DNA of 64,000 bases, taken from NCBI RefSeq assembly GCF_029633865.1, contig NC_079224.1, positions 20,810,064-20,874,063 on the forward strand. The letters are read 5' to 3'. Positions 18,561 to 32,914 of the stretch are shown one piece after another. The notes beneath the pieces are model-generated. The model worked only from the letters and a program-made list of their open reading frames with translations. It was not told where the DNA came from and made no database searches. The translations under genes were made by a program, and so were the position numbers. The DNA comes from Lampris incognitus. Taxonomy: Eukaryota; Chordata; Actinopteri; Lampriformes; Lampridae. Every line of letters starts with the position of its first letter. Position 1 is the first letter of the stretch.

Positions 18561-20276
18561 TATCGTAAAATCTTGCTTACAAGTAGCGTTGAAGTGCTAT
18601 GTCCTGTATCGCTTTGGAATTGTTTTCAGAGACGCGTGTGCTGAGAAGATAGCGGGGGGAACTTGTGGCACACCCTGCCTGGAAGAACATTCACACACGC
18701 ATGGCGGATATTAGACAATCAGATGTAATGAGGACAGGACGGCATGGTCCCCTGAGCTTTGAACAAGCCACTGATGAGTGGACTATGCCTGCCAGTGACA
18801 ATACACTGAGTCCTTGTAGCAGAGACCATTCGGCTTGCTGTGTCCCACTGTCATCAGGAACAGTAGCCTGCAGAATACTACTACATAACAGGAGGATCCT
18901 GATAGCCCAAGAGAGAGCATGTCAACCTATGGAAAGAAGTGTTGCAATACCGGCCAACTGCTCTCCATTAACCCTGCAAAGTGATAGAAGGCTGCAATAG
19001 CTGTTGGTAAATTCCACCTTTTCTTTTCTCTGGTTACTGGGGTCATGTAAACTGCAAGCTGGTAGGAGCCACATCAATTCAAAGCTGTCTCAATAAATGG
19101 GGCTCCTGGAGTATCTTCCTCAAAATGTGGCTCAACGAACACCCTTGAAAGAGTGCCAACAATCATGTAACAGCCTCAATTATTCTTCCCTTTTGTTAAA
19201 GAGAAGAAGTGATGGTGCTGGAGTAGTCACAGCTAAAGGCTCTGTCCTAGAGCCTTGCCAAATATTCAGCTCATAAATACATGGCAGTTGAAAAAAACAT
19301 GACTCAAGAAACACCCTTTCCTTTACAACCTTAATGTCAACTACAACATAACAGGTGTGGGCAGCATCACCCACAAGCTTACCGCTCACGTCCTCTTGAT
19401 TGCTGGCTTGTTGGTTTACCAGTGAATCCCCTACATTACTCTAAAGCTAAAAAACATTACAATAAGCTGTAGGTGACCTGTATTTCAGTAACATCCACCA
19501 TAACAAAAATACAATAACTCTTCTGTTTAAGACCCAGCCTATAATTGTAAAGGACCCTGGCACCCAGCAGAATCATCCAGTTCTTAACATAGCCTATCAT
19601 TTATAATTTTTATATGATACAGGGCTGATTAGGACAAAAGACAAATAGGAGAAAAATCTGGAAATGCACCTCTACTTCAATATGAGCATGAAAAATCTAA
19701 CGTTATATCAACATTGTATAAATCATTATATCAAAATAAAAGTTGAATAATCTTATATTCCCAGAAAATTGTGTTATCTATTCTGATCAAACACACCAAG
19801 TGTTATCAAGACATCATCGTATTGACAGAAGAGTCAACTGATATAAATTGATAAGGCAACCCTTTTTTCCTGTTACTATAAGGCGGTGAGAGGCTCTATT
19901 AACTTCTCTTTTGGAAACTTCTGCCTATCATGCAGTTATAAAAAACTGAAAATCCCCTTTTAACCAGTATGTTAACATAACTAAAACATTGCACAGTGTA
20001 CTGTGGGGCAAAAAATTGATGATGATGGCAGTATTTAACATGAGTGATAGACCTCTGTTAAAGTGGAAGTAGACAACTTTTTTTGCTTTAACTTATCATT
20101 ATGAAGTAAATGTTGACTGCACAGTCTAATGGCTATGGAATGACGACCAATCGGCGTTGGTTCTCCATAAGCCTCACTTTCACTATGCAACTCTGTCTGC
20201 CATCAGGCACGATTTTTCCCAGCAAATGGATTTACAGCACAGGAAGTGTGTCAACCCACCAGTAGGCGGCTAGGCA

Positions 20277-20494
20277 ATGGCGGACGGTGGAACAACTGAA
20301 GTAACTTTGGAAACTCTACCCGGCAAAAGAAGAAACCCAGTTAACAAAGGAGGCAAAGATTGAGACGCGAGAGAGTGATAGAAGATGAAATAAAGCAAGA
20401 GTGAACCACAGAGAGCATTTATTCTATGGAGAGAGCTCCAGGACTTGAGAAAGCCCCAAACCAACATTCAGTTGACATTATTTCTACTTGATCA
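20277..20494 (+). pseudogene. First-exon module of a mobile-element ORF, left arm
   Basis: ATG 20277 opens MADGGTTEVTLETLPGKRR. After frame disruptions, a residual RVN motif and an LDQ-like end lead to a GTAAGT donor at 20495. The same module occurs in the right arm (31,929-31,708) and at ~61.1-62.1 kb. Its function is unknown. It resembles a recurrent fish first exon with a KTRVNIG...RWRxL...TDAELAxFLLD pattern, recognised from memory only. Confidence 0.5.
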
Positions 20495-20547
20495 GTAAGT
20501 AACACAACCTGCCTACTTATTAATACTACCGAAGGGCGGCTATTAAT

Positions 20548-21181
20548 ACTAAATGCCGGCAGCCAGACCAACATGTACCCTGGCTCTGCCAAATGACAGA
20601 GGCTAAGCAAGTTATGGCTAGTACTTGGATGGGGGACTGTAAGGGACCAAGCTAGTAGACAACACAGGGACCTCCCGGGAAAACTGAGTTGCTACCGGAA
20701 GTGGTGTTGGTGGGTCAGTAGGGGGCAGTCTTCCCTCTGGTCCTAATAAAACAACAAATATTGAATCCCAACGCTCCAGTACAGTGATGGGGACACTGTG
20801 CTGTAGGAGATGCCTTCCCTTGGATGACATGTTAAACTGAGGTCCCGACTCACTGTGGTCATTAAAGATCCCATGGCACTTATCGCAAAGAGTAGTGGGT
20901 TCCCCAGTGTCCTGGCAAATTTCCCAACCTGGCTGTCTCCATCTGGCCACCTAATCATCCCCCATGTAATTGGCTCAATGATTCCTCCCTCGCCACCTCA
21001 AGATGAAATGTCTTGAGTGTTTTGGTGCAAAATTGCTGCTGTGCATCACCCAGGTGGGTGCTACACATTGGTGGTGGTTGAGGTGAGTTACTCCCTTCAG
21101 TGTGAAGCGCTTTGGGGGTCTAGCAAAGCGCTATATGAATGATTATTATTATTAATATTAGTAGTAGTAGTAGTAGTAGTA
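20548..21181 (+). repeat. SINE3-type, 5S rRNA-derived SINE
   Basis: The head is a degenerate 5S rRNA gene: GAGGCTAAGCAAG, then TAGTACTTGGATGGGGGACT, which are the 5S internal promoter region. The body and tail phrases (CATTAAAGATCCCATGGCAC, AAGCGCTTTGGGGGTCTAGC, AAAGCGCTATATGAATG) are those of fish SINE3. It ends in ATT and TAG simple repeats. The right arm shows the uninterrupted site. Confidence 0.9.
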
Positions 21182-21308
21182 TGTGAGGGGCTTAATCGGC
21201 CAATAATATTGAGACACTTTCACATTCACTACTGAAACACTCCTGAATCTCTTGAATATGATTATAAAAATACAAAGTTTAGATACATGTGCAAGTGTTT
21301 CACATATA

Positions 21309-31316: not shown

Positions 31317-31440
31317 TGTATATGACAGAAGTATATATGTATGCATGAGTGTTTCTCATATGTATACGTGTTTCAGAGGAGTACGTATACGATTTTATAT
31401 ACGAGCGTACATAGGTTTGCAGAGTAGGTATGTACACATG

Positions 31441-31550
31441 AGGGGGTGTCTCCCCGCCTGCCACCCGATGACTGCTGGGATAGGTTCCAGCAGCACACGA
31501 CCCCAATTTGGAAAAGCGGCTTGGATAATGGATGAATGGATGGACATGAG
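31441..31550 (+). repeat. SINE family A 3' fragment
   Basis: GTGTCTCCCCGCCTGCCACC, ATGACTGCTGGGATAGG and GGATAATGGATGAATGGATG match the 3' third of family A. Confidence 0.85.
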
Positions 31551-31707
31551 AGTGTTTCAGTAGTGAATGTGAAGGCATCTCAATATTATTGGCCTATTCG
31601 GCCCCTCATATAAACATTCGGTAGTATTAACAAGTATTATTATTATCATACAGTATTAATAGCACCCCTTCGGTAGTATTGATAAATAGACAGGTTGTGT
31701 TACTTAC

Positions 31708-31929
31708 TGATCAAGTAGAAATAATGCCAACTGAAAGTCGGTTTGTAACCCTCTCAAGTCCTGGAGCTCTCTCCATCAAATGAATGCCCGTCCGAGGTTC
31801 ACTCTTGTTTTATCTCGTCTTCTATCAACTCTTCCTCTTCGTCTTCTTTGCCCCTTCTGTCAACTGCGTTCTTTTTCTTTTGCCGGGTAGAGTTTCCAAA
31901 GTTACTTCGGTTGTTCCACTGTCTCCCAT
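31708..31929 (-). pseudogene. First-exon module of a mobile-element ORF, right arm
   Basis: Mirror copy of the left-arm module. ATG at 31929-31927 opens [20 protein letters not shown] followed by a lysine/arginine-rich stretch (KKTKRKSKREL). It then loses frame before a GTAAGT donor (31707-31702). The basic N-terminus is better preserved here than in the left arm. Confidence 0.5.
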
Positions 31930-32914
31930 TGCCTTGCTGGCTACTGGTTGGTTGACGGACTTTCTGTGAGGTAAATCGATTTGCCGGAAAAAAAATCGTG
32001 CGCGATGGCAAACAAGAGTTGCATAGTGAAATTGAGGCCTACGGAGAACCAACCCCGATGGGGTAATTATTCTATAGCTATTACATAGTGCAATCAACAT
32101 TTACTTCACAATGATAAGTTAAAGCAAAAAAAAGTTGTATACTTCCACTTTAAGAGAGGTCTATCACTCATGTTAAATACTGCCATCATCATCATCAATT
32201 TTTTGCCCCACAGTACACTGTGCAATGTTTTAGTTATGTTAACATACTGGTTAAAAGGGGATTTTCAGTTTTGTATAACTGCATGATAGGCAGAAGCTTC
32301 CAAAAGAGAAGTTAATAGAGCCTCTCACCGCCTTATAGTAACGGGAAAAAAGGGTTGCCTTATCAATTTATATCAGTTGACTCTTCTGTCAATACGATGA
32401 TGTCTTTTGATAACACTTGGTGTGTTTGGTCAGAATAGATAACATGATTCTTTTCACCTATTTATTTGTCTTCTGTTCCAATCAGCCCTGTATCATATGA
32501 AAATTATAAATGATAGGCTTTGTTAAGGACTGGATGACTTTGCTGGGTGCCAGGGTCCTTTACAATTATAGGGTGGGTCTTAAATAGAAGACTTATTGTA
32601 TTTTTGTTATGGTGTATGTTACTGAAATACAGGTCACCTACAGCTTATTGTAATGTTTTTTAGCTTTAGAGTAATGTAGGGGATTCACTGGTAAACCAAC
32701 AAGCCAGCAATCAAGAGGAGGTGAGGGGTAAGATTGTGGGTGACCCTGCGCACACCTGTTATGTTGTAGTTGAAATTAAGGTTGTAGCGTAAAGGATGTT
32801 TCTTGAGTAATGTTTTTTACTACCAGCTTGCAGTTTACATGACCCCAGTAACCAGAGAAAAGACATTTCAAAGGTGGCATTTACCAACAGCTATTGCAAC
32901 CTTCTAGCACTTTG

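What the first reader, a model, noticed from the sequence alone, without database searches (positions are those of the whole stretch)
18977..32914. Decayed giant DNA transposon with ~1.9-kb inverted ends, integrase-like and HECT-like genes
Two mirror-image arms enclose a core with an integrase-type relic (IERLW...WNNHGL...TPLQLW, minus) and a HECT-type relic (AVDLGGRRREVF, IAVSLVHGGP, plus). Each arm also carries a first-exon-like module (GTTEVTLETLPGKR). A transposon combining a DDE integrase with a ubiquitin-ligase-like ORF and kilobase-long inverted ends would be a distinctive fish element. The mirror arms are seen directly; the coupling of these ORFs into one element is inference.
Basis: partly seen in the sequence, partly recalled or inferred. 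Interest (0 to 1): 0.85.

Follow-up and report, generated by a model that had tools for sequence, protein, structure and literature searches.

The report
Decayed integrase–HECT transposon with duplicated end
This is the broken remains of a jumping gene that carried both a DNA-cutting enzyme and a ubiquitin-ligase gene; the striking mirror-image arms are probably not its normal ends but one end, with neighbouring DNA, copied backwards onto the other side.

Summary
The mirror arms are real (18977-22776 against 32914-27953). The core holds a DDE-integrase relic (PF24764, E 7e-18) on the minus strand and HECT exons on the plus strand. All 22 pairs are convergent (about 0.06 expected by chance). 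A relative on C9 keeps a D-D-E triad and a HECT C-lobe (PF00632, E 8e-14) with the catalytic cysteine.

The boundary claim is wrong. Copies at other sites end at 5'-TATGAGRGGC, that is window 21180 and 31610. The terminal repeats proper add up to a few hundred bases. Outside them lie half of a dispersed TTAA MITE (the "first-exon module") and flank seen nowhere else in the genome.

Both window arms hold 114 bp that elsewhere was found only on the HECT side. So the right arm is most likely an inverted copy of the HECT-side end plus flank, which replaced the integrase-side end and cut off the integrase N-terminus.

Best label: IS3EU-like element (6-bp target duplication not demonstrated) with a convergent HECT gene and a secondary inverted duplication. 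Repbase could not be checked.

The parts
18977..20057 (+). Outer part of left arm: host flank, no other copy found in the genome; two stretches (19066-19291, 19648-19771) have no counterpart in the right arm
   Evidence: Pairs with 32914-32156 at 93-99% in pieces; genome searches with 19000-19400 and 19400-20050 found only the two window arms, 2 of 2 candidates scored each time
20058..20530 (+). Left ~480 bp of a dispersed ~690-bp TTAA MITE, with an exon-like stretch (20277-20495) and a GTAAGT donor-like site
   Evidence: 989 first-look candidates, 40 scored; inverted termini at copies; consensus match
20551..21178 (.). Insertion in the left arm only (SINE-like by eye, with ATT/AGT tail)
   Evidence: No counterpart in right arm; class by inspection only
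21180..21303 (+). Left (HECT-side) terminus and outer TIR of the integrase-HECT element, beginning TATGTGAGGGGC
   Evidence: Terminus shared with other genomic sites whose flanks differ
21304..22532 (-). Nested young Tc1/mariner element
   Evidence: DDE_3 and HTH_Tnp_Tc3_2; 97.6% identical to a neighbouring copy, 96.9% to one on C13
22537..22662 (+). Inner TIR
   Evidence: Matches ends on both the integrase and the HECT side at other loci
22663..22776 (+). HECT-side-specific extension beyond the TIR; likely source of the right-arm copy
   Evidence: Found at the HECT side of the C13 copy and at C25, not at the integrase side of two C13 copies
24523..24669 (+). HECT N-lobe exon relic (EEAVDLGG...), with an in-frame stop
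   Evidence: tblastn with exon of the C9 copy, E 1.9e-9
25508..25681 (+). HECT N-lobe exon relic (AIAVSLVHGGPSP...)
   Evidence: tblastn E 2.7e-15; 35 genomic matches, two of them in the window
25682..26107 (.). SINE-like insertion, multi-copy, flanked by a 178-bp duplication of the HECT exon
26108..26285 (+). Second copy of the HECT exon (94% to 25503-25679)
26808..26969 (+). HECT N-lobe exon relic (ESTSLEELTQSTEPLLNYLTSAGC...)
   Evidence: tblastn E 1.1e-13
27394..27951 (-). DDE integrase relic: second D and E regions kept, first D and N-terminus lost at 27952
   Evidence: PF24764 E 7.1e-18; tblastn with the C9 copy E 2.3e-46, D2 at 27942
27953..28068 (-). Inverted copy of the HECT-side-specific extension, now on the integrase side
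   Evidence: 87% to 22663-22776
28069..28238 (-). Inner TIR of right arm
28239..31318 (+). Nested LINE with a 16-bp target duplication
   Evidence: RVT_1 E 3e-12 and 6e-14; duplication read by eye
31443..31545 (-). Nested SINE-like piece
   Evidence: Multi-copy in window and neighbouring loci
31546..31610 (-). Right-arm TIR terminus, TATGAGGGGCCG
   Evidence: Pattern hit with 2 mismatches
31611..31671 (-). Junction stretch: MITE sequence ...CTTGTTAATACTACCGAATGTTTA directly against the terminus, with a local duplication
   Evidence: against the consensus, by eye
31672..32153 (-). Same left half of the TTAA MITE, mirrored
   Evidence: Shares 10 derived substitutions with the left copy; 276 pairs of 24 other copies: median 2, maximum 7
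32154..32914 (-). Mirrored copy of the otherwise unmatched left flank
   Evidence: 93-99% identity in pieces

Best explanation
A DNA transposon of IS3EU type carried two convergent genes: an integrase-like DDE transposase on one side and a HECT ubiquitin-ligase-like gene on the other. It inserted into a TTAA MITE. Later the integrase-side end was lost and replaced by an inverted copy of the HECT-side end together with about 1.5 kb of its flank, including half of the MITE. The likely route (inferred) is a double-strand break in or near the integrase half, copying of the HECT-side end through inverted-end homology and outward into the flank, then end joining at 27952 and 32914. This made the mirror arms, truncated the integrase before its first catalytic Asp, and left no target duplication. 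Later arm-to-arm conversion (inferred) kept the outer arms similar; SINE-like, LINE and Tc1 insertions followed. Shown: the arms, the gene identities, recurrent convergent coupling, the termini, the MITE interruption, and that the extra 114 bp is on the HECT side in the informative relatives. Inferred: the break-repair route, the conversion, and any role of the HECT protein.
For: Coupling: 22 of 38 integrase loci (21 of 37 without the window) have a HECT exon within 20 kb, all 22 convergent, about 0.055 pairs expected under uniform placement. At C13 both genes lie between inverted termini. Enzymes: a C9 copy has D, D and E with 56 and 34 residues between and a HECT C-lobe, PF00632 E 8.1e-14, aligned to NEDD4 over the cysteine region. 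Termini: TATGAGGGGCTGATTAGGCCAATAA at 9 sites with up to 3 mismatches, the window's right end among them, 0 for the reversed control; flanks differ by eye. Outer arms not part of the element: no other copy of 19000-20050 in the genome, no match to 18977-20550 or 31652-32914 in the fetched C13, C25 and C26 stretches. MITE interrupted at the terminus; its two halves descend from one insertion. The right arm holds 114 bp present on the HECT side at C13 and at C25 and absent on the integrase side at two C13 copies.
Against: Arm identity is uneven: outer pieces 93-99%, MITE half 85% (87% without CpG-type changes), TIR 87-89% (Fisher P 6.6e-11 for the adjacent outer and MITE pieces). One duplication event predicts one value, so later conversion or unequal rates must be added. 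The HECT-side test rests on few copies: C13 is the only one whose HECT side is fixed by HECT exons; C25 is assigned by collinearity, with no HECT exon found there; C26, HECT-side by position, showed no match to the 114 bp; C1 is cut by a LINE there. No 6-bp target duplication was found at C13, the only copy seen with both ends. 16 of 38 integrase loci and 32 of 54 HECT loci are unpaired.
Confidence: 0.72

Rival explanations
1. One reading: one giant transposon whose normal ends are the 1.9-kb arms, each with a first exon.
For: The arms run from flank through TIR on both sides, and integrase and HECT are in the core.
Against: Other copies end at the 21180/31610 position; the outer arms are found nowhere else; the exon module is part of a dispersed MITE.
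Confidence: 0.05
2. The element inserted at the centre of an older palindrome made of flank plus MITE half.
For: Both arms abut the terminus, and the MITE is cut at the same place on both sides.
Against: The mirror symmetry runs through the element's ends and includes 114 bp that looks HECT-side-specific, which a palindromic target cannot explain.
Confidence: 0.08
3. Aberrant transposition between sister or nearby element ends, as described for Ac/Ds (recalled), made the inverted duplication, rather than break repair by copying.
For: Would also yield an inverted duplicated end plus flank without target duplication (inference, no call).
Against: Such events should leave one junction at an element terminus (recalled); both junctions here (27952 and 32914) lie inside sequence.
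Confidence: 0.1
4. Assembly artefact (fold-back read or misjoin).
For: Mirror arms are a known artefact form (recalled).
Against: The arms differ by 1-15% and carry private insertions, one with a 16-bp target duplication.
Confidence: 0.03

Closest known systems
IS3EU / GingerRoot DNA transposons (PMC10045372: 12 passages and one section seen)
   Same: Integrase-like DDE transposase, TA..TA termini, HTH-like N-terminus (weak HTH_23 in the C13 copy)
   Different: 6-bp target duplication not shown here; 'HECT' occurs 0 times in that paper
Fungal IS3EU with alpha-kinase and TET/JBP genes (PMC12730594: 10 passages seen)
   Same: Second gene in opposite orientation to the transposase
   Different: Second gene there is an alpha-kinase, here a HECT ligase; 'HECT' and 'ubiquitin' occur 0 times; fungal versus animal host
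HECT E3 ligases such as NEDD4 (solved structures)
   Same: C-lobe with the active-site cysteine in the C9 copy
   Different: Transposon-borne; N-lobe exons not reported by Pfam; no C-lobe match in the window copy
TTAA-type MITEs (Kolobok or piggyBac type, recalled)
   Same: TTAA at ends, short inverted termini, high copy number
   Different: Carries a conserved exon-like stretch with a donor site; superfamily not determined

Membership tests
IS3EU/GingerRoot | DDE integrase-type transposase | tested here: met
   Window relic PF24764 E 7.1e-18; the C9 copy has D, D, E with 56 and 34 residues between. The window copy keeps only D2 and E. That PF24764 equals IS3EU was not tested
IS3EU/GingerRoot | TA..TA termini | tested here: met
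   TATG..CATA at both window ends and at other sites; one C13 end reads GATG, and one of the 9 pattern sites reads TACG
IS3EU/GingerRoot | 6-bp target-site duplication | tested here: inconclusive
   At C13 the flanks GAGCGA and TGGAGA do not match; in the window one flank was replaced; no young copy could be read to both ends
IS3EU/GingerRoot | HTH-like N-terminal region, no HHCC | tested here: inconclusive
   C13 N-terminal ORF: HTH_23 E 4.8e-4, 20.3 bits, below the curated cut-off 24.6; HHCC not examined
IS3EU/GingerRoot | Clusters with IS3EU transposases in a tree | not tested
   No Repbase IS3EU proteins on hand
HECT E3 ligase | HECT C-lobe with catalytic Cys | tested here: met
   In the C9 copy only: PF00632 E 8.1e-14; query TCINCL aligned to NEDD4 TCFNRL
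HECT E3 ligase | HECT domain in the window copy | tested here: inconclusive
   Three N-lobe exons by homology to the C9 copy; no Pfam report; no C-lobe match in the window
HECT E3 ligase | Ubiquitin transfer activity | not testable with these tools
   -
Giant transposon with 1.9-kb TIRs | Same arms at the ends of other copies | tested here: not met
Zisupton / Ginger1 | Superfamily-specific transposase | not tested
   Only Pfam as a whole was run; the relic's one reported family was PF24764

The most novel reading that the evidence does not exclude
A vertebrate lineage of IS3EU-type transposons carries, as a standard second gene convergent with the transposase, a HECT ubiquitin ligase with an intact active-site cysteine in some copies, so the element may control its own transposase or host factors by ubiquitination; and its inverted ends can seed flank-capturing inverted duplications such as the one in this window.
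Probability: 0.5. Interest if true: 0.6.

Novelty: new variant of a known kind. Interest (0 to 1): 0.42.

Why it matters
Transposons that carry their own ubiquitin ligase would be a direct handle on how mobile DNA and its host negotiate control, and they would explain some repeated 'ubiquitin ligase-like' gene models in fish as transposon genes (the latter from recall). The window itself shows how a transposon end can turn flanking DNA into a palindrome, a worked case of genome rearrangement, and it warns against reading mirror arms as transposon ends.

Tried and rejected
The solved-structure search with one 58-aa window exon found nothing, and with a 60-aa exon of the C9 copy only two chance-level hits. 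The C-lobe exon of that copy settled it. Rfam found nothing in the window at gathering thresholds. A scan of viral contigs with the integrase relic found no relative. A target duplication for the window element and for C13 was sought by eye and not found. The idea that 20057-32153 is one TTAA-bounded element was dropped because the mirror continues outside the TTAA on both sides.

Literature: IS3EU (35 of 35 papers listed); HECT with transposon and integrase terms (no paper, 20 of 60 listed, 15 of 35 listed); GingerRoot (9 of 9); the G2/M ligase name with transposon (4 of 4); mixed terms (10 of 14,893 listed); inverted duplication (1 of 1). No title or abstract start in these listings named a HECT-bearing IS3EU, but the listings are partial. 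Beyond listings I saw only passages of PMC10045372 (plus one section), PMC12730594, PMC4255032 and PMC12062965. Repbase is not in the library.
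Full report
WHAT WAS CHECKED. The window lies at C17:20810064-20874063 of a 1.48-Gb, 537-contig genome. Self-comparison confirms mirror arms running from 18977 to 22776 and from 32914 to 27953. They are interrupted by a SINE-like repeat and a Tc1 on the left and by a LINE and a SINE-like piece on the right. The LINE has a 16-bp target duplication, read by eye.

THE CORE. On the minus strand 27394-27891 is an integrase relic (PF24764, E 7.1e-18). Homology reaches about 27951 and keeps the second Asp and the Glu regions, with a stop between them. 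On the plus strand three HECT exons survive (24523-24669, 25517-25678, 26808-26969); the middle one is duplicated around a SINE-like insertion. Pfam does not report these pieces as HECT. A genomic relative at C9:22.50 Mb carries the same exons and, further along, a C-lobe exon scoring PF00632 at E 8.1e-14; it aligns with NEDD4 over the active-site region. That C9 copy is itself interrupted by a Tc1-type transposase between its two genes (L064), so 'open' refers to its exons, not to a proven working element. The window has no C-lobe match.

COUPLING. The integrase relic finds 42 matches in the genome (97 of 97 candidates scored), which merge to 38 loci, the window included. The middle HECT exon finds 35 matches (47 of 47 scored) and the C-lobe exon 52 (76 of 76 scored), merging to 54 loci. 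The tool calls such counts lower bounds. Of 38 integrase loci, 22 have a HECT locus within 20 kb (21 of 37 without the window). All 22 are on opposite strands, tail to tail; about 0.055 pairs are expected by uniform placement. With the first HECT probe alone it was 17 of 38, all 17 convergent. Sixteen integrase loci and 32 HECT loci are unpaired; some of the latter may be host HECT genes (not tested). At C13:47.82-47.84 Mb both genes lie between inverted termini. The C9 copy has D-56-D-34-E.

THE TRUE ENDS. Sites on C13 (two), C22, C1 and C26 (in a shortened form) share the terminus TATGAGRGGCTGATTAGGCC, with small differences, with the window, and the sequence outside differs by eye at each. 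A pattern search gives 9 sites with up to 3 mismatches, one of them the window's right end, and 0 for the reversed control; the window's left end has a 2-base insertion and is not among them. This places the element ends at 21180 and 31610. No match to 18977-20550 or 31652-32914 was seen in the stretches fetched around C13, C25 and C26 (40, 30 and 30 kb). Searches of the whole genome with 19000-19400 and 19400-20050 found only the two window arms (2 of 2 candidates scored each); that search skips very common words. In the earlier search with the whole right arm only 40 of 989 candidates were scored, so it could not show this by itself.

THE EXON MODULE. The stretch 20058-20530 / 32153-31672 is the left part of a dispersed repeat: 989 candidates, 40 scored. 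In 27 copies examined, the other end was found in 18, with inverted termini of up to 24 bp, 17 of the 18 ending in TTAA. TTAA is its own reverse complement, so target duplication and terminus cannot be told apart. Typical length is about 690 bp. The exon-like stretch was not found in the fetched integrase-HECT stretches outside the window's own loci. A third copy lies at about 60867-62271 in the window. The two arm copies share 10 derived substitutions over 448 sites; 276 pairs of 24 other copies have a median of 2 and a maximum of 7, three copies having been left out. So one MITE insertion was duplicated, rather than two inserted.

WHY THE RIGHT ARM IS A COPY. At the right terminus the MITE consensus is interrupted directly by TATGAG, as expected if the element inserted into the MITE; the right part of the MITE was not found on the window's right side. 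Both arms share 114 bp (22663-22776 / 28066-27953, 87%) beyond the TIR. At other loci this stretch occurs on the HECT side of C13 and at C25, and is absent after the TIR on the integrase side of two C13 copies. C13 is the only comparator whose HECT side is fixed by HECT exons; C25 is placed by collinearity with 22685-23422 and no HECT exon was found there. C26, HECT-side by position, showed no match, and C1 is cut by a LINE there. The test therefore rests on few copies. The simplest reading is that the HECT-side end plus flank was copied in inverted orientation onto the other side, ending inside the integrase gene at 27952 and at 32914 outside.

WHAT DOES NOT FIT NEATLY. Identity between the arms is 97%, 93% and 99% in three outer pieces, 85% in the MITE half (87% without CpG-type changes) and 87-89% in the TIR; the difference is significant. 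Later arm-to-arm conversion of the outer part is my explanation and is not shown. No target duplication was found at C13.

COMPARISON WITH THE KNOWN. IS3EU/GingerRoot is described with TA..TA termini, usually 6-bp target duplications and no HHCC motif, the N-terminal region possibly playing that part (PMC10045372, passages and one section). Fungal IS3EU carry an alpha-kinase gene opposite to the transposase (PMC12730594, passages). Termini and transposase fit; the target duplication is unproven, so the label is 'IS3EU-like'. The listings and passages I saw did not show a HECT gene in such an element; they are partial and Repbase could not be consulted, so prior description there is quite possible.

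VERDICT. The 1.9-kb arms, however, are most likely a secondary inverted duplication of one end with its flank, and the 'first-exon module' belongs to another repeat.

Noticed in passing
25503-26285: A SINE-like insertion is flanked by 178-bp direct copies (94%) of the HECT exon, either an unusually long target duplication or a tandem duplication split by the insertion.
   Followed up: partly
60867-62271: A third copy of the exon-bearing TTAA MITE, interrupted by other repeats, SINE-like sequence among them.
   Followed up: partly
genome C18 and C30: Near-identical HECT copies without a nearby integrase match, three of them about 46 kb apart on C18, most with an unbroken C-lobe frame; possibly a segmental array.
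   Followed up: no
21304-22532: A Tc1 element 97.6% identical to a neighbouring copy and 96.9% to one on C13, so recently active.
   Followed up: partly
L057, L061 and C26:31627072 onward: Some copies have terminal regions expanded to over 1 kb by short repeats of the ACTACTGAAACACTC type.
   Followed up: no
genome-wide MITE family (L010-L036): The high-copy TTAA MITE keeps a ~74-codon exon-like stretch ([20 protein letters not shown]...) ending at a donor-like GTAAGT; its autonomous parent was not sought.
   Followed up: partly
22813-23562: A repeat with its own ~150-bp inverted ends inside the core; a related repeat lies beside an unrelated MITE copy (L034).
   Followed up: no
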